Shown here piece after piece: positions 11,412 to 62,212 of a stretch of 64,000 bases of DNA (position 1 is the stretch's first letter; each line of letters begins with the position of its first letter). The DNA lies in assembly GCA_964034945.1 (NCBI GenBank), contig OZ035960.1, positions 31,178,368-31,242,367 on the forward strand, read 5' to 3'. Origin of the DNA: Chrysopilus asiliformis (Eukaryota > Arthropoda > Insecta > Diptera > Rhagionidae). Both the position numbers and the translations under genes were made by a program. Under the pieces are notes generated by a model. It did not search any database and was not told the DNA's origin. It was given only the letters and a program-made list of their open reading frames with translations.

Positions 11412-11538
11412 GTGCCGTTTGCACCAACAAAACTTAGCAGCTTATTTACAACTTAAAAAATTTAAGTCGAAGAATTTCTACGGTTTAAGTAGGCTAACCA
11501 CAACTTAATTTTTTAAGAATAATACGCGCAAACAGGCC
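11412..11538. mobile_element. TWA-flanked MITE, GTTTGCGCG family, copy 1
   Basis: TTA at 11,409-11,411 and 11,539-11,541. Ends are GTGCCGTTTGCACC on the left and GGCCTGTTTGCGCG on the right (reverse complement). The interior block GGCTAACCACAACTTAATTTT recurs in copy 2 at about 42,769-42,867, which also ends in TTA. Confidence 0.7.
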
Positions 11539-11559
11539 TTAGTGATGTGCAATGATTGT

Positions 11560-12735
11560 TTTACCATTTTAAAAAAAAATTTATATAGTCGGGGGCTTTT
11601 TTGAAAATTAAAAAAAAATGTTTTTCACTCTTCTTAAAGAGTTTTGACTTTCTAATACTCGATTCAAATTTCTCTACAAGCAGTCAGTTTCATAATTTCC
11701 AACCGTCATTATTTCCAACCAAATGGCAGAAATAGGATCAAAATCAGTCCAGGGAATCAAAAAATAGTAGGAGAGGGGGTTTAAAAATTGAAAGGAAGGG
11801 GGAATTCAGGAATACTAAGAACTTCACTTCATAATTTCCAACGAAATGACGAAACGAGATCAAAATCAGTGGATCAAAAGTTATGAGGAAAGGACATATA
11901 CAAGCAGACTCTACCCCCAGACACCTTTACTCTCACCGACCTTTCAGGGATTAAAAGAAACCATTTTTTTTATTTCCAAAATAACTGAATACATATCGAA
12001 CATGGTGTGAGACACAAAGTTTCTATAAAAGACAAAACTCTAGGGAATTTCATCGTCTTCACTCAGAAAACCCGCAGTTTCGGAGTAAATTGCAAAAACC
12101 AAATTAAATATTTTCAAGAATTTCAGTTTTTTTTTTGCGAATTTTGCGAATTTTATGTAGTGGTAAATTAATAGTTAGCAACCCATAACTTTTCATAAAA
12201 ATGTCATTGCTGTTCAAATCAGATATTTTTAAAGAAAAACTACAAGTTATTTTAGTAACTAACAATTTAAATAAACGTTAACATATTTTGGTGACATCAA
12301 AAGACAAAGTTTTTCTTCTAGTTTTAACAATTTTTATTCTGTAACAAGTAAGAATGAAAGAAGAAAAAAAAACCTGGAAGCAGTAATGTAAAAGGGCAGG
12401 TAGAATATTTGTAGGGAGAACCTACCTAATTAAAATTGTTAGAGACATAAAGTTTTATATCAATTGCTTTATTGCGCACAACGTATTCTACTAATTGAGA
12501 TAATAAAGTTTTTCGTTCCAAGCGAATATTTGTAAAAAATATCTGATGTGAACAGCACAAGACTTTCTTGTACAAAATCTGCGTTCCTGTGCATTTTACA
12601 CTATAACCCGACGAAAAAAATATTAGCTTATATAAAAATATGATTTTTCTACGAAATCTGAAATAAAACATATCGGTAAAAAGCAAAAATGAATATCCTC
12701 TTCCTTTTCTTCTTCTTTTAAGTGTTTTTCCCACT
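11560..12735. other. AT-rich stretch with weak dispersed-repeat signal
   Basis: CATAATTTCCAAC occurs twice (about 11,691 and 11,830), and GATCAAAATCAGT follows each, so an old ~140-bp direct duplication is likely. Short ORFs (for example 12,426-12,734 -) show no domain. Confidence 0.35.
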
Positions 12736-12739
12736 TAGG

Positions 12740-12802
12740 AGTCTTTTTTTCGAAATTCTTCATGAATACAATACCTTATTATCCTTCGTATAAGAAAGTA
12801 AA
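12740..12802. repeat. R6 repeat tail fragment
   Basis: TTCATGAATACAATAC and CGTATAAGAAAGTAAA match the tails of R6 copies at 34.4, 50.55 and 58.65 kb. The rest of 12,803-13,214 is AT-rich without features. Confidence 0.55.
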
Positions 12803-13214
12803 AAATCGAATATTACGACGATACTAACGAAGTAACTTTGATATTGCATCGGTTATCCAAAACAGTTTTAATTACATACTTTTTCAATTACGAATATTGA
12901 AGTTATGGTGTCGTATGATACTAATTATAATTTACACTCATTATCAGATCGTTATTTTTTTTAAATTTATTAAATTACATTTATTAAAATGTAAAAAAAA
13001 TATTTGCAATGATTTATGATTTAAAAAAATTGATTTAGCCCGACTCTGAGATATCAAAGAAAAATTCTGAATATTAATTGGAAATTCTTAACTAAAAAAT
13101 AAAAAAAAAACACGGATTTATCATTAACGTACTTTAATCCAAGGTTTTTATTGGTTAACATTTTCTCCCAGTCTTTGATTCATCTATAAATATAAAATCG
13201 TTTAACCTGGGCAG

Positions 13215-13435
13215 CAATCATGTATTCCGACGCGCCTCTGTCTTTCGACTTCTCGCAGCTTTTAACTCTTGACTTCGCCATATCAGCAGCTTCAAATTTC
13301 ATGGAGTGACAGTCAGAATCACATTTCGATTCATAGTGACGATTCCGCGAAATTTCAAGCTGCAGATATGGCAAAGTCCAGAGTTAAAAGCTGCGTCGAA
13401 GTAGAAAGACAGAGACGCGTCGGAATACATGATTG
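13215..13435. repeat. Foldback, about 86-bp inverted arms
   Basis: Left arm about 13,215-13,303 and right arm about 13,347-13,435 are near-exact reverse complements (CAATCATGTATTCCGACGCG at the outer end) with a few mismatches and one indel, around a loop of about 45 nt. A GACT microsatellite starts at 13,443. No TSD could be assigned. Confidence 0.8.
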
Positions 13436-13442
13436 GTGCCCT

Positions 13443-13468
13443 GATTGACTGACTGACTGACTGACTGA
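13443..13468. repeat. GACT microsatellite
   Basis: Six GACT-type units, directly between the foldback and an R4 repeat block. Confidence 0.9.
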
Positions 13469-13569
13469 TTCATCAACGCCCAGCCCAAACCCCTGAAGCT
13501 AGAAACTTGAAACTTTCACAGTATGTCCCGACCATCACGTTGGCGTGAACGGGGGGTAAAGGGGATTTG

Positions 13570-13800
13570 GGTGTTTTTAAACCGTGATTTTCGCCATGAA
13601 TCCTGCTCGATAGGAGTATGAAAAGTTTCACTCGGGGGTTTTCGGGATCGCTGATCATGAATCCGATGTTAGATTTTCAAAACTCGAAACGGAAGGTCCT
13701 GTAAGGATAACGCAAATCTCCTTTTTCACATTTTTTTCGGAGAAAGATGGCATTAGGGGGTTTTCGGGGTCGCTGGTCACGAATCTTTCTTCGTATTCTA
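13570..13800. repeat. R4 repeat block, about two units
   Basis: Two spaced copies of GGGGTTTTCGGGRTCGCTG followed by TCATGAATC or TCACGAATC, with GAAGGTCCTGTAAGGATAACG between them, as in 4,855-5,130. Related to the arms of the foldback at 54,262. Confidence 0.6.
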
Positions 13801-13824
13801 AAACTTATACAAAAAACTTAACCC

Positions 13825-14125
13825 TTAAAGAAAAGTATTATGTTCATGACGGAGATCGACTCCAGAACGGGGGCAGATAGAAACTTTCTGATCAATAGGA
13901 AATCCGTTTCAGGAAAATGACGAGGATGTCCGTGCATGTGTGTGTCGGGCTGTCTGTTGGTCTGTCTTTCGGTCTGTCTGTCGGTCTGTCTGTCAATCTG
14001 TCTGTCGGTCTATTTATCGGTCTGTCTTTCGGTCTTTCGGTCTTTCGGTTTGTCGATCTTGCGGTCTGTCGGTCTGTCTGTCTGTCAGTTTGTCGGTCTG
14101 TCTGTCTGTCGATCTGTGTAAGATA
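13825..14125 (+). repeat. R3 dispersed repeat with CTGT tract
   Basis: Contains TTCATGACGGAGATCGACTC, AGAACGGGGGCAGATAGAAA and a CTGT/CGGT tract from about 13,945 to 14,117. Related sequence occurs at 26,246-26,310 and 58,985-59,140. ORFs over the tract are tetranucleotide translations. Confidence 0.65.
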
Positions 14126-14172
14126 TTAGAAAAAATTTATTTCGCACATTTTTTTTCGAAATTTTAAATATA

Positions 14173-14861
14173 TTGTAGGCACAAATGGAAACCCGCAAGC
14201 AGTAAAATTCTGCTCAAGAATGTCAGATCAGAAACGTCAAATGATAAGCTAGGCAACTGCCAACAACTCTTTATCATTAAATTTGTGAATTTTTATCGTT
14301 ATTATGCGTGAAAATGTCGAAATTTGTACTAAATAAGCGTCATTGGCGGGAAGTTTTGCTTTTTGCCTTCAATTCAAAAAAATCTGCGGCTGAGGCGTGT
14401 CGAATGATTGTAGAAACTTGTAAAATTGTGAAAAACCGATCACAATTAATGCGTTTGAGCCGAGCATTGAAGGGAAAACGTCCACAATTCGAGCAAATTT
14501 TTTTTTAGTGATTTTGCAGCACGATATCGCTTGGTCACATGTTGCTAATGTCGTCAAAGCCTATCAGGAAACCCTGAATTGAGACGTCCTACCCCACCCG
14601 CAATATAGTCCAGACATTGCTCCTTCCGACTACCACCTGTTCTGATCGATGACGCATGGTCTGGCTAAGAAGCACTTCCGTTTGCACGGGGAGACCAAAA
14701 ATTGCATCGATTTGTTGATCGCCTCAAGAGATGAGCAGTTTTTTCGACGCGGATGGGAAAAAGTCATGGCTAGTGATGGACAATATTTTTAATAATAAAT
14801 ATGTAAGCATTTTTCCACAAAAAAAGCCTGACATTTAGAAAGAAAAGGGTGGTTTTTCCAA
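14173..14861 (+). mobile_element. Non-autonomous mariner (D34D) element, copy 1
   Basis: TA at 14,171-14,172 and 14,862-14,863. The right end (TTGGAAAAACCACCCTTTTC inverted) aligns with TTGGGAGTACCGCCATTTT at one end of the copy at 36,554-37,321. The left end is more diverged. It encodes a decayed mariner transposase with an internal deletion shared with the other copy. Confidence 0.75.
14314..14792 (+). pseudogene. Mariner transposase pseudogene (internally deleted, nonsense and frameshift)
   Basis: It starts MSKFVLNKRHWREVLL, a mariner N-terminal helix-turn-helix region, and jumps after ACRMIVETCK to the C-terminal half (QLMRLSRALKGKRPQFEQ). A frameshift near 14,500 leads to VILQHDIAWSHV, PHPQYSPDIAPSDYHLF and VMASDGQYF with its stop at 14,790-14,792. 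Exactly 34 residues separate the HD aspartate from the SD aspartate, the D34D spacing that defines mariner. The first catalytic Asp is lost with the deletion. Two in-frame TGA codons interrupt the C-terminal half, one just before DVLPHP and one between HLF and SMTHG. It cannot encode an active enzyme. Confidence 0.9.
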
Positions 14862-14867
14862 TAGCAG

Positions 14868-18231: not shown

Positions 18232-18722
18232 CTAGCTTGCATACCCGTCGTTGCCGGGTTAAGTTTTTTCAAATTTTTATTTTATTTTTTTGATTGGAGC
18301 TAAACTTCAGGCCAATCGGCTCGGTGGTTTCCCCGCGAAAGGGTAATATAGAGGAAAAGATAAGTTTCGAGATCACTTTACCCGCACCCCTTACTCCCTC
18401 CACGCTACTTTTTAATGGATCTATGTTGGGGCTGGACCCCCGACGAACATCTATGCCAAATTTCAGGCCAATCGGTTCAGTAGTTTCCCCGCGAAAGAGT
18501 AACATAGCGCAAAAACTAAGTTTCGAAATCACTTTACCCCCTCCCCTTACTCCCCCCACCCCTCGCGTTACTTTTCCGTATGCCTATGTTGGAACCAGAA
18601 CTACTACAGATACTCATGCCAAATTTCAAGTCAATCGGTTCAGCCGTTTTTGCGTGAAAGAAAAACAGACAGACAGACAGACAGACGGACAGATACCAAA
18701 TCATTTTTATATATTAGTATGA
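18232..18722 (-). mobile_element. Helitron-like non-autonomous element, full-length copy
   Basis: On the minus strand it begins TC after a host A (18,723) and ends CTAG before a host T (18,231), the A/T insertion expected of Helitrons. Just inside the 3' end is a CCCG-loop-CGGG hairpin (CCCGGCAACGACGGG on minus). Near the 5' end is a CTGT tract, then repeated blocks containing CCAATCGGTTCAG on +. No Rep-helicase is present. Confidence 0.75.
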
Positions 18723-22947: not shown

Positions 22948-23270
22948 AGCCCAATTCAGACTAACGATTGCGTTTACGAGTGCGATTACGAGTGCGATTA
23001 ATCGATTACGATTGCGAATTCGATTGAAGTATCTCAACCAACGAGATCAAAGCTTTCACCGATAAGGAAATGAATGCTTTAATCTCATTGGTCGAGGAAG
23101 CTCAATCGTAATCGGAATCGTAATCGGAATCGTAATCGGAATCGTAATCGGAATCGTAATCGGAATCGGAATCGTAATCGTAATCGTAATCGTAATCGGA
23201 ATCGTAATCGGAATCGTAATCGCAATCGTTAGTCTGAATCGTAATCGCAATCGTTAGTCTGAATTGGGCT
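22948..23270. mobile_element. TWA-flanked MITE, AACGATT family, intact copy
   Basis: Perfect 25-bp TIRs at 22,948-22,972 and 23,246-23,270 (outer AGCCCAATTCAGACTAACG), with TTA at 22,945-22,947 and 23,271-23,273. The core has a second inverted pair around AGATCAAAGCTTTCA. Related copies are at 757-893 and 62,064-62,209. Confidence 0.85.
23104..23245. repeat. Hexamer-based minisatellite inside the MITE
   Basis: TCGTAATCGGAA units, varying between TCGTAA and TCGGAA, fill the right half of the element. They appear to have grown from the CGATTAC-type motif of the TIR. ORFs reading ITIPITIP or DYDSDYDS are translations of this tract. Confidence 0.9.
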
Positions 23271-24077: not shown

Positions 24078-24425
24078 AGGCCCAACTACGATCGACATAG
24101 CAGCGCATATGTAGCTGCATATGTAATTTCCATAATAAGAAAGTCAATGTTATTACCCACAATAGACATGTGTCAAAGTGTTGCCACTTTCAAACCTTCG
24201 TTAAACTTTCGTTAAGCATGAATGATTCGATACAAATGGAACTGGCATATGTAAATAGTAAACATAACCTAAAATTTTAGTGTGAATTTAATAATATTGT
24301 GGCCATATTAATTTCCAATTGAGGTAAAATGAAGATTAGCTTTTATTTTGACAGCTATGTATGTCAACATTCGTTGGGAATTTGACATTAACATATGCGC
24401 TTTTATGTCGATCGTAGTTGGGCCT
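24078..24425. mobile_element. TWA-flanked MITE, AGGCCCAACTACG family
   Basis: Perfect 22-bp TIRs at 24,078-24,099 and 24,404-24,425 (AGGCCCAACTACGATCGACA and two more bases), with TAA at 24,075-24,077 and 24,426-24,428. It has no coding capacity. TSD and GGCCC end are PIF/Harbinger-like. Confidence 0.85.
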
Positions 24426-28660: not shown

Positions 28661-28710
28661 ATATGCAAACTGATTTTTTGAACCAAACCAAAAACCAGTG
28701 GAGCATTTAA

Positions 28711-29107
28711 CACGTTGAGCGCCACGTGCCCACCGGTGGTCATTCTTTAAATTACGCAGTAGGCCGCGTGCTTACGAGCGGGTATTCCTTGGTTGACATT
28801 CTGGGACCAACATTTTTTTTATTTTTTTTTATTGATTTATTGCAAGTACTATCGATTCCAAGTAAAATAGGTTTACATACTGGGACCAAACTTAATATTT
28901 CTCAAAGCTAAATATACATATGTAAAAGGTTCTTACTAGTGGTCACGATGTCTCGGAATGAAAATGTAGTGTGCCCGCGGGTGGTCACGTTGTCCCACCA
29001 TCGACATCCAATAATGACCACCGGTGGTCACTTGGTCTTCTGTTGGTCTTCTGTTAGTCTTCTGGAAAATTAAAATGTTCACCGGAGGGCACGTGGCGCT
29101 CAACGTG
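28711..29107. mobile_element. piggyBac-like MITE with TTAA target duplication
   Basis: TTAA at 28,707-28,710 and 29,108-29,111. TIRs begin CACGTTGAGCGCCACGTGCC on both sides with few differences over about 31 bp. Subterminal ACCGGTGGTCA-type motifs recur several times. TTAA is the piggyBac signature. No transposase is encoded. Confidence 0.85.
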
Positions 29108-29280
29108 TTAAATTTCAGTAAACCAAACCAAACCATTTTCTAAAACAAATGCGGTGTTAAACATGACGAGAACCAGAAAAAATGTTAAAAATGCCTAGAA
29201 CCAAAACCAAAAAAAAAGACCAAGAACCAGAAATTTTTTAAGCTTTAAATTTGAATTTTTGGGATCGAAAAGTTGTTATA

Positions 29281-29566
29281 GACTGTGTTTACATTAAGAT
29301 TCACTTTGAGGCGGCACGTATTTCCTCATTTCTCTGCCGTGTGCACGCGGTTCGCATCATCTGGATTCACTAAACCGGTTTCATCAACAAAACTAACCGA
29401 AACAGGTCACAACAACCAGACTCAAACCAGTTTGCGACCGATAATTTTAAGTGAATCTAAACTTCGTTCGCTCTTTTTGGTTTCCCTCCCCACTGCGTCC
29501 CTCACCATCACTTGGCCGGGGCGAAAGACGTGCCGCCTCAAAATGAGTTCTAATGTAAACACAGTC
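29281..29566. mobile_element. MITE with 39-bp TIRs (GACTGTGTTTACATTA)
   Basis: Arms 29,281-29,319 and 29,528-29,566 share GACTGTGTTTACATTA at the outer end and TTTGAGGCGGCACGT at the inner end. GTTTACA matches the subterminal core of the TWA cohort, but no clear TTA/TAA duplication flanks it. The ORF at 29,285-29,620 is not considered a gene. Confidence 0.75.
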
Positions 29567-32961: not shown

Positions 32962-33427
32962 AAGCTGATTTACAATGCAGCAGCAACGCCGACAGCAACA
33001 GCAACGTCACGGAGAAAGTGTTTTGATTGGTCGAGAATCGACTCTTTGACGTCAGATTTTCAGAGAGATATTTTGCTGCCGATTCATTTCTAATTCTAAA
33101 TTTGAGCAGCAACGCTAAGCAGCAACGTTGATAGCTGGTTTTTGTTGGTTATGTATACATATGATTGACATTTTAGGAACGAATTTCGTGGCGAATTTTG
33201 TGTTTAAAATGAAGTTTAAGATTGTTAATTAATAAAAATTTAATTTAGGTAATCATGAAAGAAAGATTAATCCCCAAAAAACTTCTAACAATTCGGGAAC
33301 GTCAATTTTTGCTGTTGCTGTTGCTGCTTCATTGTAATTCATCCGACAGCATTTCTCTTTTTGCCGTCGCTCTTTACGTCGACGTTGCTGTTGCTGTTGG
33401 CGTTGCTGCTGCATTGTAAATCAGGCT
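32962..33427. mobile_element. TWA-flanked MITE, GCAGCAGCAACG family
   Basis: TTA at 32,959-32,961 and 33,428-33,430. TIRs of about 45 bp share CTGATTTACAATGCAGCAGC followed by AACGCC and ACAGCAACAGCAACGT. Inner partial copies of the same CAGCAACG motif lie on both sides of the centre. CAG/CTG-rich words give short artefact ORFs. Confidence 0.85.
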
Positions 33428-33534
33428 TTAGTGCCTTTTTGACTGAAAACTAAATATTCGATAAAGGCCTAAAACTGAACTGAATTTTTTTTTTCGAATA
33501 ACGGTTTACCGTCATTATCTCGATACCGGTCTAA

Positions 33535-33799
33535 GAGGTTGTTTACATCTGACACTTTACTCCGCGAATTTATACTTCGACACGAAATCCATGTTGCACG
33601 ACCGTTTACACTACGATACAAAATTCTGAAATTTATTTCTGAAAAACGTCCGAAATCGAATTTTCAAAAGCATAAATTCAAATTTTGACAACTTTTACTA
33701 CGCGAATTTATTCTGCGATAGATGAATAAAATCCGCGGAATAAATTCTGAATAAAATTCGTGGAGAAATTCAAGAAAAATCGCAGGTGTAAACGGGGTC
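33535..33799. mobile_element. TWA-flanked MITE, GACCCCGTTTACACC family, copy 1
   Basis: TAA at 33,532-33,534 and 33,800-33,802. Ends are GAGGTTGTTTACATCTGACA and, inverted, GACCCCGTTTACACCTGCGA. Its partner at 47,586-47,848 has nearly the same length (265 versus 263 bp) and shares internal words such as CTGAAATTTATTTYTGAA. Confidence 0.85.
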
Positions 33800-33884
33800 T
33801 AAGATATCGAGTTCTAGTACAAACATTAGTTTTATTGGCATCAACTTTTGTCACACATAAAACTAATGAAAAATTCGGAACTTC

Positions 33885-34440
33885 GAAGTTAATCGCGAAA
33901 AACGAAATTGCGATTTTGAAAAAGCCGCCATTTTGGATACTTCTGGTTAACGGATTTTCAACAAAAGTTGGTGGGATTGTTCCATTCCAGGACCAAACAT
34001 GTCTGTAAAATGTTATGGCTCTAACTCTATTAGTTTTTGAAAAATCTTGTACACAGACTGAAAAACTGACAGGCAGAAAGACATTTTTGTTTTAAAGCCT
34101 CAACCACAATCACGCGTTCGTGCGTGCGGCACCCACGCGGTGAAGGTAAAAACTACGCATTTATATGAGTAAATGTATAATTGCGCGCTGCTCAGACGCG
34201 TTGCCGCGTCCCTGCCGCGTAGAGTAGGCTCAGTCTCTACTTTTAGACGCGGTGACAACTACTAGATGCCAAAATAAAATCATGCCACACGCACGGACGT
34301 ATGTTTCTGGTTCTACCTTAATGCTTCAATCGACTCAGGCGTACTTAGGAAATGTTTTTTTTTGGGAAAAATAAAAGGTCGAAATTTTTCATGAATACAA
34401 TACTGTCTTAAGGCAAGGAGGGGACGTCCAAAAAGTATCG
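33885..34440 (+). repeat. R6 dispersed repeat, copy 1 (interrupted by a MITE)
   Basis: R6 runs from a CGCCATTTTGGATACTTC block through CCATTCCAGGACCAAACATG, TTATGGCTCTAAC and AGACATTTTTGT to a tail with TTCATGAATACAATAC. Related copies are at 50,315-50,580 and 58,495-58,680. The MITE at 34,096-34,318 interrupts it. Confidence 0.65.
34096..34318. mobile_element. TWA-flanked MITE, GCGTGCGGCA family, inside R6
   Basis: TAA at 34,093-34,095 and 34,319-34,321. Ends are AGCCTCAACCACAATCACGC and, inverted, AGGTAGAACCAGAAACATAC, converging on CGTGCGTGCGGCA. The R6 copy at about 58,530-58,560 gives the empty site (CATTTTTGTAATAATGCTCC). The body is unusually GC-rich for the window. Confidence 0.8.
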
Positions 34441-36553
34441 TAACGTATTTTATAGACAGTGTCGAAGACAAAAAAAAAACATTTAATTTTTTTTATAATT
34501 AAAAAGTAATTTTTTGTCAGGATTTATTAATTTAAAAATCAATCATCACCGTCTCGACAAATCGAATAGCTTATTTAAAAATCCGTCAAAATTCATCATA
34601 TTCATAAATATTGAAATAAAATTCTGCCGTCTATAGAAAAAATCGTCAACGAGTATAAATCCTTCCGTATATATTTTTCCCTATTCTCCTGTTATTCAAA
34701 GAAAGTGCCATTCATGAAAATGATTTACAAGGATATAAAAATTTAACATGAATTTCGCTTTATATCAATGGTGAATTGAGTGTTTAAAGGCATTTTTAGG
34801 AGTAATTTTATTTTTACATCTTCATTACAAAGGTCGTTGACGGGGAAAAACAAAAGGGAAATTTTGGGAAATCAAAACTTAGTTAAATTGTTATCGTCCC
34901 CCTTAATTTGCACGTATTTCCATAGGAAAAAGGACTAAATGAACGACAATGGAAGAAGGGACAAGAAAATTGACAAATAGTCAACTCGGAAAGTTTACGA
35001 AATGAAATTCAACAAAGTTAGGAGTTTCGAGGTCCCCCTTCTGTGCCATAAGTTCACTATTTAGGCCTCATCGTTATGTTAAACGGGAACATTGAAAGTT
35101 TTTCGAACAGGAGACGCTGCCGCCGCCGCCGCCGACAGGGTCACCAACCATCCCTTAAGCCACTAGACGAGTGTGCCGAATTTTTGTTCTGGGATGGGCG
35201 ATATCGTATTTTGCTTCCATTCCCTCTCTGTCGCCCAGGACAATTGGGTTATGGGTTAGGTTGGATCTTAATTCAATTTTGATTGCTCTTCCATCATTGT
35301 AAAAAAAAAATTCGGTATTCGCTCAGTTCCCGACTTTTTATTATTTTTTTATATTTGAATTTTCCCCCTGTTTTGAAGGGGTCGTTTTCTCAGCCATAAA
35401 ATGTAATTAAGTTTAAAATTTGTTTTTAACTTTTTTTTTTACTTTTTTGGTTCTAAAACGAATAACTTTGTATTTTCATTCTGTTCGAGGCTGGATGGTT
35501 TTCTAACCAAAGTCTTTTTTTCATTCTTAGGTTTCACATATTTCTTCTCACACCATTTTTCCATTTTTTCCTAGTTTTGTTTTTCTTTCTTTTTGATTTT
35601 TTTTCAGATTTTAACCGTTGTTGTAAATGGGAAAGAAAGTATTCAGGTCTAATGAGAGACCATAATTTTCGCTTAGCTTAATGGCTTGCAATTGGGTTAT
35701 ACCAATTATCAGAAAAGAATAGGAAAAACAGAGGGAAATTATGGGTGGCCGGTGGTATAGAAATATGAAATTTTCCGGAAACTGGGGCACGGTGGCACAC
35801 GAGAAGAAAAGAAACTTTGGAATAATGCCAAGTGTTATTGTTGTTGTTTGGAGTTTTTTTTTCTTCTTCTTAGTCTCATTCTCGAAGCTTTTTCGAGTTG
35901 GTGCTTTTTTTATTGGGTTGAATGGATGGATGAATGATAAGTGGTTCAAATGACTTCAGTGCGGCTTGGCTCTGATACAGGGTGTGCTGCTTATTGTTGT
36001 TCTGTAATTGAGCTTAAAATTGCCAAGTTCTGATTGAGGAAAGTGAAATAAAGAAGAAAGAAGTCTACTCCAGAAATTGTTTGATGGACGAAACAAACTG
36101 AAAAATATGAGAATTTTTTAATAAAAATAAGGAAATTATTCTTGTACAAGAAATTGCATTGCATTACAACTAACCCAGGAAAATAAAGTGATTATAGAAC
36201 TCATAACTCTATCATTGATAAAATGATATCTTGGTATGAATGTTTTATAATTATCTTCATTATTAGCGTTTTTTCGTTAAATTGAGCAATCAAAGAAATT
36301 GGCGAAAGCACGCAATCATGTGAAACGATAAAAAAAAAGTTACATATGCAGGCTGCACATATTCCGTAATTATGCTTCAATAATTCTGTCAGTTGAGCTT
36401 TCGATAATTGCTCATAACAGAAAATTTCTTTATTAAAATTTGTTTCAATGCAAATGAGTGAGAATTCTTTCTCAAAGAAATCTCCAAATAAGTTTTATAA
36501 GTCAATATATTCAAAAAAACAAAAAAAAAAACGATTTTCATATTTGGAAAATA
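34441..36553. other. AT-rich, no supported gene
   Basis: A short GCC run lies at about 35,116-35,135. ORFs are low-complexity (35,076-35,282 +, 35,611-35,949 -). No TIR pair or domain was found. Confidence 0.35.
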
Positions 36554-36618: not shown

Positions 36619-37120
36619 TTATTCTTCAAAATATTGTCCATCACTAGCCACAACTTTTTCCCATCTTTTTGGCACCATACGGATTCTGGGTTGAAAAATT
36701 GTTCGTCTCTTGAGGCGATCAACAAATCGATGCAATTTTTCGTCTTTCCGTATGAACGGAAGTGCTGCTAGCCAGGTCATGCGATATCGATCAGAACAGT
36801 TGGTAGTCGGAAGGAGCGAAGTCTGGAGAATACGGCGGGTGAGGTAGGGCGTCCCAATTCCGGGTTTCCTGATAGGTTTTGACGACATTAGTAACATGTG
36901 GTCGAGCGCTATCTTGCTGCAAAATCATTATGTCATGTCTTTGCTCGAATTATGGCCGTTTTTCCTTCGATGCTCGGCGTTTGATTAATTGTGTTCGGTT
37001 TTTTACAGTTTTACAAGTTTCTACAATCATTCGACACGCGTCACCCGCAGATTTTTTCGAATTGAAGGCAAAAAGCAAAACTTCCCGCAAATGACGCTTA
37101 TTTAGCTCAAATTTCGACAT
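36619..37120 (-). pseudogene. Mariner transposase pseudogene, same lineage as 14,314-14,792
   Basis: Reads MSKFELNKRHLREVLLFAF and ACRMIVETCK, then passes straight to the C-terminal half with ILQQDSARPHV, PHPPYSPDFAPSDYQLF and RWEKVVASDGQYFEE. The two aspartates are again 34 residues apart. The His before the second Asp is replaced by Gln. Stops interrupt it at the codon after EKRP and between QLF and SISHD, and a frameshift follows. The second stop and the deletion joint are shared with the other copy, so both defects predate their spread. Confidence 0.9.
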
Positions 37121-38336: not shown

Positions 38337-38517
38337 AGGGGCCTCCACACGTTCAATGTTACTTGACACTTTTACTTGAATGACTCATGTTTCAAGTAAC
38401 ATTGATCGTTTGGATACTCTTCAATGTTACGTTTGCAGGCAATTTCCATCATTGTTACTTGACGAAAATTTTCATCAATAATACTTGTCAAGTAATATTG
38501 AACGTGTGGAGGCTCCT
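38337..38517. mobile_element. TWA-flanked MITE, CCTCCACACGTTCAAT family
   Basis: TTA at 38,334-38,336 and 38,518-38,520. TIRs of about 32 bp (AGGGGCCTCCACACGTTCAA versus AGGAGCCTCCACACGTTCAA) run on to TTACTTGACA. The interior has further copies of CAATGTTAC in both orientations, so the whole 181 bp is highly self-complementary. Confidence 0.85.
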
Positions 38518-39975: not shown

Positions 39976-40147
39976 AACCTACCCCTTCAAACCCCTTCCT
40001 GCTTGGGATATCGAGTAAAATTCTTTGTATTGTGTTCAGTACAATATCTGGAAGATTCTTTTATATATTTCTCATCTGCGGACTTATCCCCTCAAACCCT
40101 TTGTAATTTTACCTATATTAAAAATTGAAACTAAAAACGTTCGAAAT

Positions 40148-40754
40148 AAAAAAAAAATTTTCTAAAAAAAATAAAACCGACTTTAAAAAAAACTGAAAAG
40201 AGAAAAAAGCACTAAAAAGAAAAAAATAATTTCAAACTATGTCCATTAATAGCGTATTTAAAATTCGGGTTTTTTGGAGTGGCGTTAAATTTGCAACTAA
40301 AATAAATTACATACTTTCTAATCGTTTACATACTTTCTAACCCTTAAGGCTAACTAAGAACTAAGATCGACTCCGAAAATTTTGTTGTCAAACAGATTAA
40401 CTATAGACACGGCTCTTAGAAGCACCAAAACTAAGTTCTTTTATGTCCCGAATTGGATTCCCTATTTTTAAGCAATCGCTATAAAAAAAACCCACTGTCT
40501 CATATGTTACTATTTTTTGTAGAAATCTATCCTATTTTTTGTCTCCATGCACAAATTGATTTTGTGCGAAACTTGACAATAGAAATTTTACAACGATTTT
40601 ATTTAGTGTAAATTTAACGCCACTCCAAAAAAGCCGAATTTTAAATACGCTATTAATGGACATAGTTTGAAATTATTTTTTTCTTTTTAGTGCTTTTTTC
40701 TCTTTTCAGTTTTTTTTAAAGTCGGTTTTATTTTTTTTAGAAAAATTTTTTTTT
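40148..40754. repeat. Long foldback: 145-bp arms, 317-nt spacer
   Basis: Arms 40,148-40,292 and 40,610-40,754 are nearly exact reverse complements, including TTAATAGCGTATTTAAAATT, TGGAGTGGCGTTAAATTT and AATAAAACCGACTTTAAAAA. A transcript across it would form a duplex of about 145 bp. The outer part belongs to an AAAACCGACTT repeat family that I believe is common in insects. No ORF. Confidence 0.9.
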
Positions 40755-42768
40755 AGATTAAAATTTTAACATTGGCTTAACAGCACGAGTATCCGATACA
40801 AAAGGGTTAAGTATCCTTGTTTATTCGTGACCTTTATTGTAAAACTTTGGATCATTTCCATTCATACAATGACTGTTAACATATAAGTTATAAATACTTT
40901 TCAGTATAAGGACGTGGAATTGTAAAATTCACAAATTAAGTCTTGTTCCAAAATAACTCTGTCTTAAAATCCTCCAGTTAATTGTATAAAGTTGAATTTT
41001 ATTTGGCTCTTCAACAGTACATTTAACTTATATACTTTAAGTATATTTAATATGTATAAAAAATAATAATACAAAATGGAATGAAACAAAAACCATTCAT
41101 ATAAATATGATTGTATACTAGTAATAGTGTATACTATTAGTACATTTATATGAATACGAAAAGCATAATCATTTCGAAAATGAAACACACTAAGTTTTTG
41201 GTATATTTGCGCTTCAAGTACAAACATTAAACATATTATGGGCCACCATCAACGAGGCCTGTGTTATGTAATTGGTATAATTAAGTTAATGACATTCCTT
41301 ATTTCAAGAAAAACGCTTCAAAATTTACTATACGCACATATACACATTAGCTGGATATAATTTGTGTGTTTCAAATGTTTAATAGTGGATTGTCTATATA
41401 TATATATAATACTTGTGTTAAATAACCATTTTTTAACATACATTCAGACATATATGTTGAAGTAAGTACAAATGTGTATTTATGGTCAGGACTGACTAAA
41501 TGTATTTTTACATAGCGCTTAAAGGGAAGGAGTTTCGGAAATGTAGCATAAGTAAAAGTTTCGTCACAGAGATGGAGAAAGCTTCAATCGAGTAAGAGAT
41601 CCATGGTGAAAACCTAGGCTTAAGTATGGAGTCCTTTTATGCCCGAAGGACACAGGAAAATTACCAACCGACTTGAAGTTGAACGCTCTCTTGTCTGAGG
41701 CCTCTCCATGGTGCCGGAACAAAAGTTAGAAAATGTTAGTACAAGTAGCTGGGAAATTGTTTTCTTTCTCGTAACTTTTTTTTCGCTTTCCATGCTTATT
41801 CTTTTGGAACTGAACAAGAACAAAACCAAGAATAAGACCAACATCGAAACCAAGTTTTCTTTTGCCTTTAGTTTTTGTTGTCATTTTTGTTGTTCCTGCT
41901 AGATTATTTTACTTTGGGAGATTTTTTTTCTTGTTTACTCTGTTTGTGAGTGTTTCGTTACTTTTTTTCTGTTCTGCCTAAGATGAAAATCTAGAGTTAA
42001 GTATCTACTCTCATGGATTTCTTGTGCCTCCGAAATGTGCTTGAACAATGGATTTAAGTGCAAATTAGGTTCTTAACTGATAAGTGTAATAGCGCCAAAA
42101 AGTTCTACAAGCATAAAAGGTAAGTTTGATGTTAACCTTAATATGGAAGCGATGTATATATACCTTATATTGCTGTATCGCAACGGATGTACCTACATAT
42201 ACCTAAAGTAAAAAAAAATGCATCTATAGTATACCTACTAAACTAAAAGATACACTAACGATCTACTTATTCGCTATGGCAGCCAGCATGCCTATTCCAT
42301 ATCCCATATTAAAATTGGTTCTACCAAAACCTACATATAAACCAGTAAAACATACATATTTCTACTTCGTAAGACGTCTCTTAGGTCGTCATAGTAAAAT
42401 AATATCACGTTAGATATGATAAGGGAACTTTCCTTTGCATGAAACTTTAAAATGAATATTTACTTTAAAATTGGTCTAACATAACATGCTTTTAACTATA
42501 ATGAATATTGCGACATGAAGCTGATTATTATAATAAAGACGCAAACATAACTATGATTATGATCCCGTCGTTTTGGCCGACCTAAACGAGTCCTTACGAC
42601 GACTTTTATTTAAATTTATTTCTTTATTTGCGCATCCCCTTTCATTTTATTAAGCAACTTTTTCGCAAGCAAACCGCTATCTTTAAATGTTGTCTTTCTT
42701 AAAGATTTTCTTTTAGGATACGGTGGGCCCTACGTTTTCCGAAACTACTTTTGATGTGAAAAAGTAGG
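40755..42768. other. AT-rich, no supported gene
   Basis: A TA run lies at about 41,392-41,410. AAAAG-GTAAGTTT at about 42,116-42,125 resembles a splice donor without a supported exon. ORFs are short and domain-free. Confidence 0.35.
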
Positions 42769-42867
42769 GTTGCCGTTTCTATATTTAGAATACTTTAAGT
42801 CCCAGAATTTCTAAGGTTTAGGCTAACCACAACTTAATTTTTGAAGAATAGTACGCGCAAACGGGCC
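42769..42867. mobile_element. TWA-flanked MITE, GTTTGCGCG family, copy 2
   Basis: The right end, inverted GGCCCGTTTGCGCG, is followed by TTA (42,868-42,870). GGCTAACCACAACTTAATTTT and GAATTTCTA are shared with 11,412-11,538. The left end (TTGCCGTTT) has lost its clear TSD. Confidence 0.6.
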
Positions 42868-43235: not shown

Positions 43236-43672
43236 AGGGAGAACTCCAATTGGGCAGAGGCAGCAGCAGAGGCAGAACCAGTAGCAACAGCAGAAGCAGA
43301 ATCTGCTTTCTGTCCCACAATGAAATTTGAATTCTGACGAAAATAGCAGAAACCTGTCAAAATATTGTACGTATTTATATTCGCGACATGATTTGTCGTA
43401 GAATGTTTTGTTGTTTTTAACATATTCAATTAATTTCTCCTCCATTTCAAGTATTACAAACATTTACTTCCGTTCATGTATGCAACAAATGTCAACAACG
43501 ATTTGTGAGGTTAAATTGAAAGCAGAAATTTAGAGATTAGAGCTAAAATGTGTTTCTGCTTCTGCCACTGCCTCTGCTGCTGCTTTATTGGAGCTCATCA
43601 CATAAGACGCTATGTGGTCTAAAGTTCTGCTTCTGCCTCTACTGCTGCCTCTGCCCAATTGGAGTTCTCGCT
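43236..43672. mobile_element. TWA-flanked MITE, GCAGAGGCAGCAG family
   Basis: TTA at 43,233-43,235 and 43,673-43,675. TIRs of more than 40 bp (AGGGAGAACTCCAATTGGGC, then AGAGGCAGCAG) match closely. The right terminal module is partly repeated inward at about 43,553-43,604. The Ala/Ser-rich and Cys-rich ORFs at 43,193-43,463 are translations of GCAGCA repeats. Confidence 0.85.
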
Positions 43673-47585: not shown

Positions 47586-47848
47586 GGCGCCGTTTATACC
47601 TGACACTTTATACGGTGAATTTTATTCTTACTAAATTCATTTTACACTAAGCCACGAAATTCTGAAATTTATTTTTGAACGACTCCCGAACTCTATTTTT
47701 TTCGTATGAAACAGTCCAAAAAAATTCAAATTTTGAAAACTTTTGCGAAAAGAATTAATTCTACGACAGATTGATAAAATTTGCGGAACAAATTATGCAT
47801 AAAATTCGGGGAGAAATTTAAGAAAAAATCGCAAGTCTGAACGGGGTC
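47586..47848. mobile_element. TWA-flanked MITE, GACCCCGTTTACACC family, copy 2
   Basis: TAA at 47,583-47,585 and 47,849-47,851. Ends are GGCGCCGTTTATACCTGACA and, inverted, GACCCCGTTCAGACTTGCGA. Same family and size as 33,535-33,799. Confidence 0.85.
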
Positions 47849-48059: not shown

Positions 48060-49015
48060 TAGGGTAGATCGGGGATAGTAGACCCACTTTTTATAATCTA
48101 CTTTATAAAAGTTTTACTGTAATTATTTCAGGTGTAGTAAAGACGTTTTTGGTTGGTTTATTCAATTGTGTTTCTTAGTCAATCTTTTATTTTGACTAAT
48201 TATAAGTGTTTCAAATATTTTTTTTCATTTTAAAAAAAGTTGTTCGATGAGTCGACTAACCCCGTGTCTGGGGCTTGTTCACTCTGTGAACGGGGTTATT
48301 TGACTCTATACTTTTTATGGGGAAAATGTGTTGGAACATATTAAAAAACTATAATAATTCTGAAAAAAATTATTCTTTAAAAAAATAATAACATTTCAGA
48401 TTAACATAAATTAATACCCCGATTGCGAGTGTCGTGTCGTTTTCGACAAGAGTCGTTTTACGTGTTGTTGTTGGTAGAAAAACACTAACAACAACACGTA
48501 AAACGACTCTTGTCGAAAACGACACGACACGCGCAATCGGGGTGTAAATTTCATCTAATTTAAAAAAATAAAATTAATTAACAAAAAAATATAGGTAATT
48601 CATATCGGGTCATTTAACCCCAGTATACTGTGAGTCAACTAGCCCCAAGCCGCCATTTTATTTTTAACACACTCGTGAAAAAAAATGAAAAAGTATGGGT
48701 CAGAAAATGCTTCACTAACTTGTTAACTCATACATAAATTTTCACTTGAAATCATTGACGAGTTCAATACAATGAAAGTGTAAGCTACAAAACAATTTAA
48801 TTACCAAGAAAAAAAATTACTCCCACGCTTGAAATTTCGTTTTTCCCCCTCACAGTTCGTTCCAAGAGCACTGTGGTCTAACGACATAGGTTCACCGATA
48901 GCTGTCAGTCGACTGAATAAACAGTCCAATTCACGCAGGTTTGTTTTCAACCGTGGTTGACTTAACCGCAATGAGTCTACTTACCCCTATAGCCAACTAA
49001 GCCCGGTCAGCCCTA
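48060..49015. mobile_element. TIR element with repeated CTAACCCC/GGGG motifs
   Basis: Ends are TAGGGTAGATCGGGGATAGT and, inverted, TAGGGCTGACCGGGCTTAGT. Inside, motifs such as GTCGACTAACCCC, GAACGGGGTTATTTGACTC, GTCATTTAACCCC, GTCAACTAGCCCC and GTCTACTTACCCC recur every 50-250 bp in both orientations. A different palindrome is nested at 48,417-48,542. No ORF or TSD was established. Superfamily unknown. Confidence 0.55.
48417..48542. mobile_element. Near-perfect 126-bp palindromic MITE
   Basis: Arms 48,417-48,475 and 48,484-48,542 pair with only two mismatches around an 8-nt loop. The outer end is CCCCGATTGCG, and the arms contain GTCGTTTTCGACAAGAGTCG and GTTTTACGTGTTGTTGTT. Little divergence between arms suggests recent insertion or gene conversion. 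Confidence 0.85.
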
Positions 49016-54261: not shown

Positions 54262-54455
54262 GGTTTTTGGGGTCGCTGATTACGAATCTGAAGTCAAAAA
54301 TTCAAAATGACGGATCCAATATGGCGGTCAATAAAGATAAAATTACGTACTAGTTTTCAGCGTAATCTAATGAATTTTATCTTTTTTGACCGCCATATTG
54401 GATCCGCCATTTTGAATTTTTGACTTCAGATTCGTAATCAGCGACCCCAAAAACC
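54262..54455. repeat. Foldback with 83-bp arms, 28-nt spacer
   Basis: Arms 54,262-54,344 and 54,373-54,455 are nearly exact inverses, containing GGGGTCGCTGATTACGAATC and GGATCCAATATGGCGGTCAA. The first motif links it to the R4 blocks at 4.9, 13.6 and 24.7 kb. The family appears widespread in arthropod genomes from memory. Confidence 0.88.
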
Positions 54456-55575: not shown

Positions 55576-55578
55576 TTA

Positions 55579-56223
55579 TACTATGTTCACACCGACGCAA
55601 AATTACGTAATTTTGAAGATTTTCGTAATTTTGAACGAAATCTTCCTCGAAACCACGAGATTTCCAGTACATTAACCTATTTTCAAAATCACTAAAAGTA
55701 TGCAATTTCCACAAAATTAGGAACGGAATCAAGCAAAAACAATGTATACAACCCTGCATCACTTATTCAGCTCTCTTCAGTACATCAGTTTTGAGAAGTT
55801 TTGACATTTGTGCTGCATTGGAAAAACGGAAATATAAGAAAAAGAAGCCGTGTTCCGCACGCGAAGAGGATATATTAGTAAACAACCTACGCGGGGCAAA
55901 AAAATGGACCTGTTTTTGATGCGATTAGATATGAAATGGGAAATAATTGTTTATTTTTATTACAGATAATTTCCATTGTCGTCTAAAGTGTCTAATTCTG
56001 TTTGCACATATTTGATCGATGTTTTGAATTGTATTATTCATCATATTACTAAAATTCATAGCAATCCTACACTAAAATTCATAGCAATCCTACACTAAAA
56101 TTCATAGCAATCCTGTAGTTGAAATGTCAAACAGAATTACCTTAACCTCTGTGTGAACACTTTGGTTTAAGATTTAAATCATTTCGCAAAATTACGTGAT
56201 TTTGCGGCGGTGTGAACTTAGTA
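55579..56223. mobile_element. TWA-flanked MITE, GTTCACACCG family
   Basis: TTA at 55,576-55,578 and 56,224-56,226. Ends are TACTATGTTCACACCGACGC and, inverted, TACTAAGTTCACACCGCCGC, both continuing AAAATTACGTAATTTTG or a close variant. At 645 bp it is the longest of the cohort. No transposase fragment was seen inside. Confidence 0.85.
56051..56118. repeat. 23-bp tandem repeat, three units
   Basis: AAAATTCATAGCAATCCTAC plus ACT repeated at 56,051, 56,074 and 56,097, the last diverging at its end. It lies inside the MITE. Confidence 0.95.
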
Positions 56224-56226
56224 TTA

Positions 56227-56834
56227 AACAATTTTAATCACTTTTGATATGAGGATCATATATCTGGGAGAAACTTTTCGCGATATATTGTACAATTTTT
56301 TGAAAGAAGTGAGTTTTGAGAAAGTCAGAAATTTTTTTACAGTTTTCCGGAAAGCCTTTTGCAGTGTCGAAGAGTCAGAGTAGACTGCACAGTTAAAAAT
56401 AATTACAACATTCAATGTTGCCAAAAATTGTACCAACTTTGAATGGTGTGAAAACTCATCACGAATGTAAATTTACATCTCAGTGTTGTAAAATTGCAAT
56501 TACCTAATCTGTAATTTTGCATCGTTGTTAATGTAAAATATTTCATAGATCTTTTCCTGAAAAAAGAATTTACTGAAATAAAAAAGAAGTAAAAATGAAA
56601 GATTAGAAATTTTTATCAGAACACTTTTACGAATTTAGTCGTAGAAAATGGGTTCGTTTAGGGAAGCTTTTACGTTTTACCTACATTTATTCTATTAAAG
56701 GAAGCTAACTAAAATGTACCAGTAATTCAATTTTTCTAAAACTTAAAAACTAAAATTAAAGAAAAGCAAGGAAGTAATACTCATTCGAGTTCTCCGTGTT
56801 GAATGATTCATGTGGCTTTGTGTCCCACAATTTA
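56227..56834. other. No recognised feature
   Basis: AT-rich. Words such as AAATGTAAATTTACATC near 56,466 resemble the TGTAAATTTACA-type repeats at 44 and 57.5 kb. Confidence 0.35.
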
Positions 56835-57315
56835 TCATACTAATATATAAAAATGAGTTGGTGTCTGTCTGTCTGTTTGTCTGTTCCTCTTTCACGCAAA
56901 AACGGCTAATCCGATTGACTTGAAATTTAGCATGAGTGTCTGTGGTAGTTCTGGTTCCAACATAGGCATACGGAAAAGTAGCGCGAGGGGTGGGGGGAGT
57001 AAGGGGAGGGGGTAAAGTGATTTCGAAACTTAGTTTTTGCGCTATGTTACACTTTCGCGGGGAAACTACTGAGCCGATTGGCCAGAAATTTGGCAGAGAT
57101 GTTCGTCGGGGGTCCAGCCGCAACATAGATCCATTAAAAAGTAGCCCGAGAGGTGGGTGAGTAAGGGGAGGGGGTAAAGCGATCTCGAAACTTACCTCTT
57201 CCTCTATGTTACCCTTTCGCGGGGAAACTACCGAGCCGATTGGCCTGAAGTTTAGCTACAACATAGACCATAAAAAAAATTTGAAAAAACTTAACCCTGC
57301 AACGATACCCGTCGT
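56835..57315 (+). mobile_element. Helitron-like element, + orientation, decayed 3' end
   Basis: Begins TC after a host A (56,834) with TCATACTAATATATAAAAAT and a CTGT tract, and follows the 18.2- and 20.7-kb copies through CCGATTGGCC blocks to a degenerate GCAACGATACCCGTCG, where the terminal CTAG is lost. Confidence 0.75.
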
Positions 57316-57782: not shown

Positions 57783-57854
57783 GCACATAGTCTTAGACAA
57801 GTAAAAACGCGATATAAAGAATCGACTTCATCACGTGGATGCAACAGGTGAGTT
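57783..57854 (+). promoter_or_regulatory. Possible short exon bounded by splice-like motifs
   Basis: TAATTTTCCAG precedes 57,783, and GCAACAG-GTGAGT places a donor at 57,848/57,849. The 66-nt interval ends in ATG CAA CAG. It may be a 5'-UTR or start exon, or chance. Confidence 0.18.
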
Positions 57855-59577: not shown

Positions 59578-59585
59578 CCTTTAAT

Positions 59586-60458
59586 AGATGATGAAAATAG
59601 TTATAATAGATGTAGATGAAAATATCTTCAACACAATCCACTTCACTCAAATAGGCCCTTGAGCAAAAAGACTTTGAATAATTTCTCTCCATCTTCAAGT
59701 TTTCCAACAGACTTGTTAGAAAAATCTTTTTTTTAATAAGAAATTGAATGCATAAAAAATATTATGCTTTCAAAACGTTCTTAGACTTGAGTGAGACTAA
59801 AAGAAGGTGGAAAATGTTTAAGAATGTGAACAAATTTTATTATTTGACGCTACTACATAGTATAATTGAAAATCCGTTTTCTTTGCAAAATGATTTAATG
59901 AATTCATTTATGTTCCATGGTAACACTGAACTTTAGCTTCAATTATATTATGCGCTTTTTGTCCGTGGGAAACATGATTTGAGTAGCATATATTTTACAA
60001 ATTATACTTCAAAAGACGGCTCAAGTTTGTATAGGGAGTAATCAAAAGGATAAAATTGAATTTTGTTACACTTGTCGCGCACGTTAGACATTAAAGGGTC
60101 TTCTTTCTGCGAACGAAATTAGTAAATTCAATTATTTATGAATCCAAATCGGGACTGTAACTAAAACTAGTAGTTTGTGCAAATAGTCAATTTTATAACT
60201 GAATTGTGACAATAGAATCGACTTTTAGGTATTTTTTTTAGTGACCCCATGGTTTCCGGGTTTAAGATCTTTGAATACATTTTTAAAATACCGAAAAAAT
60301 AATACAGAAACCACTTATGGAGAAAATATTTTTGTCCTTACAGAACTTTTGGGTACAATTTTCAAAATTTTTATACCAGATTCGTATTCAGTTACCTATT
60401 GGCTTACTCATTCTACTCTGCCTTGTATCTTGAGGTAAAATTACCCATCATGCTAATA
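59586..60458. other. No recognised feature
   Basis: AT-rich. A faint TAGT-repeat relative lies at about 60,150-60,230 (AAATAGTCAATTTTATAAC). Confidence 0.35.
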
Positions 60459-60706
60459 TGAGGCGTTAAAAGCTAGAGTGGACCAACCCACATGTCGAAA
60501 TCGTGAATTTTTTTGTGTTTGAATCACTATTGCGAGTGAGCTTCTAGATAAAAATGTTTGGATGCACAATAGAAGATTTCAACATTGAGTAATAAAGTCC
60601 ACACCAATTTTTTTTCCAAAAATTTACAGTAAATAATAGTACAAAAGTGAAAAAGCTTCAAAAACTCGATTATGTGGGTTGGTCCACTCTAGCTTTTAAC
60701 GCCTCA
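60459..60706. mobile_element. MITE with TGAGGC TIRs, copy 2
   Basis: TIRs of about 34 bp (TGAGGCGTTAAAAGCTAGAG, then TGGACCAACCCACAT) are almost perfect. The interior matches 8,062-8,308 in inverted orientation. It sits at the tail of R2 copy 5, a different site from copy 1. Confidence 0.8.
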
Positions 60707-61202
60707 TATATAAACATAAGAAAATTTACAATTGTCAGGGGCCAATCGTCAAATACCATATGATGGCAGACAAAATGTTTATTTAAAAAAATCCATCTGA
60801 ATAAGAGAGGGGGAAAGGAGTGGTCCGATTGGATTTTGATGTGCGGATAAGTTGTGGAAAATCATATTCCAAACACATTTAGTCTTTATAAATTTTTCGA
60901 TACGATGCACAGTTTTCGAGATAACAGGAAAAAAGTATTCCATTTGTATGGGAGAGGGGAGGGGGGAAGCAGTAATCCTTTTGGATTTTGGTGTGTGAAT
61001 GAGTTATGCTAAATCCTATTCTAAACACATTTCGCTTTTATAAATTTTTCAATATGACCTACCGTTTTGGAGTAAATTAGAAAAAACTGTTTCGTTCGTA
61101 TGCTGGAGGGGGGAAGGAGTGGTCTAATTTTGGTCGTTCAAAAAATTAGTCTAGCATTTACGAGAAACGTAACTATACAAAATTTCAAATCCCTATCTCA
61201 AT
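60707..61202 (-). repeat. Dispersed repeat R2, copy 5
   Basis: Reads R2 inverted: tail (TTGTCAGGGGCCAATCGTCA), TTGGATTTTGATGTG twice, and the CTAGCATTTACGAGAAACGT block before a greatly expanded CAGA tract. Confidence 0.65.
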
Positions 61203-61593
61203 CAGACAAACAGACGGACAGACACATGGACAGGCAGTCGGACATACAGACGGACAGACAGACGGACAGATGTACACACAGACAAACGGACAGGCGGTTA
61301 GACAGACGGTTAGACAGATAGACAGACGGTTAGACAGACGGTTAGACAGACGGTTAGACAGACGGTTAGACAGACGGTTAGACAGACGGTTAGACAGACG
61401 GTTAGACAGACGGTTAGACAGACGGTTAGACAGACGGTTAGACAGACAGTTAGACAGACGGTTAGACAGACGGTTAGACAGACGGTCAGACAGACGATCA
61501 GACAGACGGTCAGACAGACGGTCAGACAGACAATCAGACAGACGGTCAGACAGACGGTCAGACAGACGGTCAGACAGGCGGTCAGACAGACGG
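61203..61593. repeat. Expanded CAGA-derived minisatellite with 12-bp units
   Basis: Starts as CAGACGGACAGA-type tetranucleotides, passes into many near-identical 12-bp units GTTAGACAGACG (about 61,297-61,485), then into GTCAGACAGACG variants. The Arg/Asp and Ser/Asn/Arg/Leu repeat ORFs on both strands are translations of this array. Confidence 0.95.
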
Positions 61594-61596
61594 ATC

Positions 61597-61690
61597 AATT
61601 GAGGGGTCGGGGGAGGGGGGTTGCAGTAAGGGGGTGGCAGTAAGGGGGGAGAGTACAGTAAGGGGAATGGGTACAGTAAGGGGAATGGGC
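61597..61690. repeat. G-rich tandem block
   Basis: Runs of 3-7 G separated by short spacers, with CAGTAAGGGG units repeated at least four times and AAGGGGAATGGG twice. It has G-quadruplex potential on the + strand. Confidence 0.8.
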
Positions 61691-61782
61691 GTGGCTACAG
61701 TCAATCCGATTCCGAAGGCTGGAATTTGTTGTCTTTTTGTTAGTTTTGAAAACCATTTTCGGAAGAGAAAAATCTTTAAAGA

Positions 61783-61840
61783 AAAACGCGGACCGCCCAC
61801 TCTAGACTATCTAATTTATAACCAACTGAATTTTTTTTTT
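61783..61840. repeat. Fragment shared with the Helitron-like copy at 20.2 kb
   Basis: CTATCTAATTTATAACCAAC and the bases before it match the inverse of 20,215-20,275. The rest of 61,841-62,060 has no recognised feature. Confidence 0.55.
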
Positions 61841-62063
61841 GGATTACAGGGTAAGGGGTTTTTGATCAAAATCCTTTCACCAATCTAGGAGATATCAAGA
61901 GAGGGCCAGAAATTTTTTTCTTCTTTTTTAACATTTAGATTCTTATTTAACCGAACGTGGCCAAAAACAATCGCGGCGACTCCACGCAATATGTAGATTC
62001 CGAAAGATATCAATAATCAAAACAAAAATCTATGATTCTAGTGAAAAAATGTCGGTAGCCTAA

Positions 62064-62209
62064 TGCCCGCAGCACACTGACGATTGCGATTACGAATGAA
62101 GCTTCTCGACCAATGAGATCAAAACTTTCAACGATAGGGACATGAAAGCTTTGATCTCATTGGTCGAGGAAGGTCATTCGTAATAGCAATCGCTAGTGGG
62201 ATACGGGCA
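62064..62209. mobile_element. TWA-flanked MITE, AACGATT family, short copy
   Basis: TAA at 62,061-62,063 and 62,210-62,212. Ends are TGCCCGCAGCACACTGACGA and, inverted, TGCCCGTATCCCACTAGCGA. The core CGACCAATGAGATCAAA and its inverse are shared with 22,948-23,270, although the outer 15 bp differ. Confidence 0.85.
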
Positions 62210-62212
62210 TAA

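What the first reader, a model, noticed from the sequence alone, without database searches (positions are those of the whole stretch)
11412..62212. A cohort of at least twelve MITEs sharing TTA/TAA target duplications and a GGCCC-n-GTTTACAC-like end
Seen directly: elements at 11,412, 22,948, 24,078, 29,594, 32,962, 33,535, 34,096, 38,337, 43,236, 47,586, 55,579 and 62,064 each have TIRs of about 14-45 bp flanked on both sides by the same TTA or TAA. Two more (757-893 and 42,769) keep one good end. Interiors fall into about nine unrelated families, from CAG-rich to palindromic AATTACGTAATT. The outer ends align to (A)GGCCC-n-GTTTACAC with drift. TWA duplications are known for PIF/Harbinger. Inference: one transposase source has mobilised many unrelated short DNAs. 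I do not know this set as a described system.
Basis: partly seen in the sequence, partly recalled or inferred. Interest (0 to 1): 0.75.

Follow-up and report, generated by a model that had tools for sequence, protein, structure and literature searches.

The report
Tourist-like PIF/Harbinger MITEs in arthropod DNA
This stretch of (most likely arthropod) DNA carries about a dozen old, short, gene-less jumping-DNA copies that look like the well-known Tourist-like MITEs of the PIF/Harbinger transposon superfamily; they are real but ordinary.

Summary
A blind scan finds 7 TTA/TAA-flanked pairs with at least 14 of 16 end matches; 60 shuffles average 0.1, at most 2. Interiors form about ten families, three with two or three copies in the window. 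The ends share a weak but real profile, roughly (A)GSCC-n-n-TTYACAC: with each family left out, its ends rank at a geometric mean tail of 0.001. The profile also picks out 4 of 4 TWA/TDA-flanked silkworm MITE families and 0 of 11 others scored (PMC2997013). Ten of 12 rebuilt target sites read CTTA or TTAG (P 5e-5), in line with the extended target preference of PIF/Harbinger. No Harbinger-type protein was found in window 1-59,990. Best reading: non-autonomous Tourist-like PIF/Harbinger MITEs, a known kind in insects. One single transposase source is not supported: end identity is 0.47 between families, 0.75 within, 0.41 shuffled. The genome search did not complete, so the autonomous partner is untested.

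The parts
757..893 (.). Family A relic, only the right end (893) intact, TTA follows
   Evidence: 71-75% alike to the 62,064 and 22,948 elements over 92-96 bp; leave-family-out end tail 0.0007
11412..11538 (.). Family C MITE, 127 bp, TSD TTA
   Evidence: weak TIR (9/14)
22948..23270 (.). Family A MITE, 323 bp, TSD TTA, first 20 bp of the TIR identical, interior rich in CGATTACGATTNCG repeats
24078..24425 (.). Family D MITE, 348 bp, TSD TAA
29594..29911 (.). Family E MITE, 318 bp, TSD TTA
32962..33427 (.). Family F MITE, 466 bp, CAG-rich ends, TSD TTA
33535..33799 (.). Family B MITE, 265 bp, TSD TAA
   Evidence: 72% alike to the 47,586 element; weak TIR
34096..34318 (.). Family J MITE, 223 bp, TSD TAA
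   Evidence: TIR only with a gap, single copy, the least certain of the twelve
38337..38517 (.). Family G MITE, 181 bp, near full-length palindrome, TSD TTA
42769..42867 (.). Family C relic, right end (42,867) intact, TTA follows
   Evidence: 87% alike to the 11,412 element over 78 bp; leave-family-out end tail 0.0003
43236..43672 (.). Family H MITE, 437 bp, CAG/GAG-rich ends, TSD TTA
47586..47848 (.). Family B MITE, 263 bp, TSD TAA
   Evidence: weak TIR
55579..56223 (.). Family I MITE, 645 bp, AATTACGTAATT palindrome near the ends, TSD TTA
62064..62209 (.). Family A MITE, 146 bp, near full-length palindrome, TSD TAA

Best explanation
These are non-autonomous Tourist-like MITEs of the PIF/Harbinger superfamily. 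Each was cut and pasted in trans by a PIF/Harbinger transposase with its Myb/MADF-type partner, encoded elsewhere in the genome. That machinery recognised the short terminal end and inserted into TTA/TAA, preferably CTTA or TTAG, duplicating three bases. The ten families most likely come from several related autonomous lineages at different times; only the superfamily-level end signal is common to them. Shown: TSDs, TIRs, shared end profile, target preference. Inferred: the transposase, its partner, trans-mobilisation and the number of sources.
For: 12/12 TTA/TAA duplications. Excess over shuffles and over permuted partners. Leave-family-out end profile: geometric mean tail 0.001 over 26 ends; mean log tail -6.7 against -1.4 (sd 0.5) for 40 column-permuted profiles, 0 of 40 reaching it. 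The profile recognises 4 of 4 TWA/TDA silkworm MITEs and 0 of 11 others at tail < 0.03 (TIRs from PMC2997013). CTTA or TTAG at 10 of 12 sites against 26% background, P 5e-5; an extended target preference around the 3-bp TSD is described for PIF/Harbinger (PMC2836001, passages). Sizes 127-645 bp; no Pfam match at E 0.01 inside the 11 elements that lie in the scanned part.
Against: No transposase or Myb/MADF gene was found in window 1-59,990, and the genome could not be searched. Plant PIF/Harbinger ends score less well: 7 of 11 have a best tail below 0.012, the mPing end only with an added A. Of 21 control placements on 19 other inverted repeats, 7 reach the worst true-end tail (0.0138) and 3 reach 0.0025, each at the best of six positions, so the profile alone does not prove an element. 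Families D and H lack the TTYACAC core. The target test was made after seeing the sites, among 14 flanking positions.
Confidence: 0.93

Rival explanations
1. One single transposase source with relaxed end recognition mobilised all ten families.
For: A common end profile and a common target preference; mobilisation of mPing by the related Pong as well as Ping is described (PMC2836001, passages).
Against: First 16 bases are 0.47 alike between families, 0.75 within, 0.41 when shuffled. Main within-family matches differ, 71-87%. The same profile fits silkworm families, so the shared part marks the superfamily, not one source.
Confidence: 0.1
2. Another superfamily with 3-bp duplications (recalled: Zator, some CACTA or Academ elements) made some or all of them.
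For: A 3-bp duplication alone does not name a superfamily (recalled).
Against: TTA/TAA specificity, CTTA/TTAG preference and the match to Tourist-like silkworm ends.
Confidence: 0.04
3. Chance inverted repeats in AT-rich DNA beside frequent TTA/TAA.
For: Weak TIRs in four of the twelve elements; other 3-mers also give pairs, and at 13/16 they too exceed the shuffle mean (14 against 6.8); AAT and ATT pairs.
Against: 7 observed against 0.1 in shuffles at >=14/16; 2 of 10,000 permutations; out-of-family end ranks.
Confidence: 0.01

Closest known systems
Tourist-like MITEs BmMITE-4, -5, -6 (TWA) and BmMITE-7/Organdy (TDA) of Bombyx mori (PMC2997013)
   Same: TWA-type TSD, size 213-567 bp, ends that score 10.6-11.9 on the profile made here (tails 0.0002-0.0003)
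   Different: Other TIR letters and species; the paper sees no TIR similarity between its TWA families, whereas a profile shows a weak common end here. It files Organdy as novel, not as Tourist-like. Interiors were not compared
PIF/Harbinger-like elements and Tourist MITEs of plants (Medicago MtPH, rice mPing; PMC2213677, PMC2836001)
   Same: TTA/TAA TSD, extended target preference, ends with early G and a GTT or CACAATG motif
   Different: Weaker match to the profile; autonomous partners are known there, none found here
PIF/Harbinger MITEs of Helicoverpa (PMC9033116)
   Same: Many families of 55-720 bp in one insect genome, classed by TSDs TWA, AT or AWT
   Different: TIR letters were not seen, so ends were not compared

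Membership tests
PIF/Harbinger superfamily (as Tourist-like MITEs) | 3-bp TTA/TAA target site duplication | tested here: met
   12 of 12 elements, above shuffles
PIF/Harbinger superfamily (as Tourist-like MITEs) | Terminal inverted repeats with the superfamily's end signal | tested here: met
   Leave-family-out ranks; 4/4 silkworm TWA/TDA MITEs recognised, 0/11 others; plant ends weaker
PIF/Harbinger superfamily (as Tourist-like MITEs) | Target preference that extends beyond the TSD | tested here: met
   C before or G after TTA at 10 of 12 sites, P 5e-5, chosen after seeing the sites; stated as a superfamily feature in PMC2836001. The CWCTTAGWG consensus of maize PIF is recalled; a search for that word found no paper
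PIF/Harbinger superfamily (as Tourist-like MITEs) | Autonomous partner with DDE transposase plus Myb/MADF protein and the same ends | tested here: inconclusive
   Not found in window 1-59,990; the genome search did not complete
MITE | Short, non-coding, multi-copy | tested here: inconclusive
   Short; no Pfam match in the 11 elements scanned; copy number could be seen only inside the window, 3 of 10 families with 2-3 copies

The most novel reading that the evidence does not exclude
A single PIF/Harbinger transposase lineage with loose end recognition has mobilised ten unrelated short DNAs, including simple-repeat and palindromic ones, needing only a degenerate (A)GSCC-n-n-TTYACAC end.
Probability: 0.1. 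Interest if true: 0.4.

Novelty: new member of a known kind. Interest (0 to 1): 0.15.

Why it matters
It is useful mainly as annotation: ten PIF/Harbinger-type MITE families in 64 kb, and a degenerate end profile that transfers to silkworm families which were reported to share no TIR similarity. That profile could help find decayed Harbinger MITEs in insect genomes. If one transposase did move all ten, it would bear on how much end specificity a Harbinger transposase needs.

Tried and rejected
An autonomous copy in the window: six-frame Pfam scans (stops as X, E 0.01) of 1-59,990, 24 segments in 12 searches, gave only two sub-threshold Mos1-type HTH_48 pieces and two weak other matches, TrAA12 and PT. 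Larger TTA/TAA-flanked pairs up to 9,000 bp among ends with profile tail <=0.005: no long pair with good TIRs (best over 1 kb was 11 of 16, for 32,963-36,014). That scan listed 118 TWA-adjacent rows in two registers; 36.9 are expected per register, so unmatched single hits are not counted as elements.

The 48,415-48,544 pair (TAA both sides) was rejected because the palindrome extends beyond it. 29,281-29,566 has a Harbinger-like end but no duplication and was left out. Rfam gave nothing at gathering thresholds. Exact patterns: family D end, 0 in viral contigs; family A end, 0 in genome contigs; family A interior, 0 in viral contigs and 1 in genome contigs, in a Shewanella contig, taken as chance and not followed. 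A literature search with two window words gave no paper holding two of its three terms in the top rows and was not pursued.

Caveats on my counts: low-complexity and GC-poor arms were filtered out before counting. Family C ends were shifted by one base to fit the profile. The right end of 34,096 was misplaced by three bases and corrected from then on. Of the 17 silkworm families, BmMITE-11 and -12 were not scored because their TIRs are too short.

Full report
What is there. The window is AT-rich (GC 30-37%); Pfam finds hardly any coding sequence in 1-59,990. This points to an arthropod host; the species was not determined. The two relics keep one end each, at 893 and 42,867.

Chance. In a blind scan (16-base ends, 60-1,000 bp apart, low-complexity arms removed, overlaps merged), 7 TTA/TAA pairs reach 14 of 16 matches; 60 dinucleotide shuffles give a mean of 0.1 and at most 2. 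All other 3-mers together give 2 against 0.63. At 13 of 16 the result is 9 against 1.05 (maximum 4) for TTA/TAA and 14 against 6.8 (maximum 14) for the others. Of the 9, one is nested in the 22,948 element and one (48,415) lies inside a longer palindrome. Independently, 28 maximal inverted repeats were taken without regard to duplications: 6 carry TTA/TAA at the edge, against 1.14 when right partners are permuted; 2 of 10,000 permutations reach 6. An unmerged, gapped count per A/T 3-mer is less clear-cut, because tandem repeats and palindromes feed it: at score 14 or more, TAA 22 of 38,086, TTA 13 of 36,640, AAT 18 of 65,257, ATT 10 of 60,916, ATA 5 of 32,987, TAT 4 of 31,193, AAA 2 of 172,790, TTT 2 of 173,892.

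Families. BLAST of the elements against the window groups 22,948, 62,064 and 757-893 (A; main matches 71-85%), 33,535 and 47,586 (B; 72%), and 11,412 and 42,769 (C; 87% over 78 bp). Seven are single in the window: D 24,078, E 29,594, F 32,962, G 38,337, H 43,236, I 55,579, J 34,096. That makes ten families. F and H are both CAG-rich but gave no match to each other at E 0.001.

Ends. A family-weighted profile of 26 ends reads roughly (A)GSCC-n-n-TTYACAC with low information per column. With each family left out in turn, its ends fall at a geometric mean tail of 0.001 of all window positions (26 of 26 within 1.4%); 40 column-permuted profiles give a far weaker mean (log tail -1.4, sd 0.5, against -6.7). 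Controls: 21 placements on the 19 inverted repeats that are not in the elements, each at its best of six positions; 3 reach 0.0025 or lower (1,404, 24,818, 48,415) and 7 reach 0.0138, the worst tail of a true end. So the profile is a group signal, not proof for a single end. The strongest outside check is the silkworm MITE table of PMC2997013 (passages seen). Scored on 13 columns, its three TWA families and the TDA family Organdy have tails of 0.0002-0.0005; the eleven other families long enough to score lie between 0.037 and 0.91. Plant ends are weaker: 7 of 11 have a best tail below 0.012.

Target. Joining the flanks gives 12 empty sites. Turned to read TTA, 7 have C before it (background 13%, P 0.0003), 6 have G after it (15%, P 0.005), and 10 have at least one of the two (26%, P 5e-5). 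These P values are not corrected for the 14 flanking positions looked at. PMC2836001 (passages) describes an extended target preference, 9 bp in plants, as a superfamily trait. The maize consensus CWCTTAGWG is recalled only.

Mechanism. From PMC9710019 and PMC2836001 (abstract and passages): PIF/Harbinger elements encode a transposase and a Myb/MADF protein, both needed for transposition where tested, and they mobilise Tourist-like MITEs. The elements here carry the signals and no detected protein, so trans-mobilisation is the inference. Six-frame Pfam scans of 1-59,990 found no Harbinger-type transposase and no Myb/MADF domain. The genome search was unanswered ten times.

One source or several. 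First-16 ends are 0.75 alike within families (26 pairs), 0.47 between (299 pairs), 0.41 after shuffling, and within-family copy identities run from 71 to 87%. The common part of the end is shared with silkworm families, so it is a superfamily signature. Several related sources over time fit better than one. PMC2997013 already suggested that unrelated TWA families may share a transposase.

Verdict. Real, well observed, ordinary: Tourist-like PIF/Harbinger MITEs, perhaps new families, of a known kind.

Noticed in passing
28711-29107: Inverted repeat with TIR CACGTTGAGCGCCACGTGCCC flanked by TTAA on both sides (28707-28710, 29108-29111): candidate piggyBac-type MITE.
   Followed up: partly
1402-1968: Internally deleted mariner-type element; its ORF fragment is up to 80% identical to spider-named DD41D transposases, ends inverted, TA on both sides.
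   Followed up: partly
14335-14418 (+) and 37013-37099 (-): Two sub-threshold Mos1-type HTH_48 fragments.
   Followed up: no
29281-29566: Inverted repeat with GACTGTGTTTACATT ends resembling the Harbinger end, no clear duplication, directly beside the 29,594 element: possible decayed extra member.
   Followed up: partly
40147-40755, 54262-54455, 48369-48590, 60456-60709: Long inverted repeats (arms 98%, 98%, 80% and 100% complementary) not counted as TTA/TAA elements; other transposon or foldback types.
   Followed up: no
18294-18722 (+) and 56743-57255 (-): Open frames sharing the peptide NFRPIGSVVSPRKGNI and EITLPPPLTPP-like stretches: an interspersed repeat of unknown type.
   Followed up: no
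61150-61694: Repetitive stretch open on both strands (RLDR/SDRR and SNRL/SDRL repeats).
   Followed up: no
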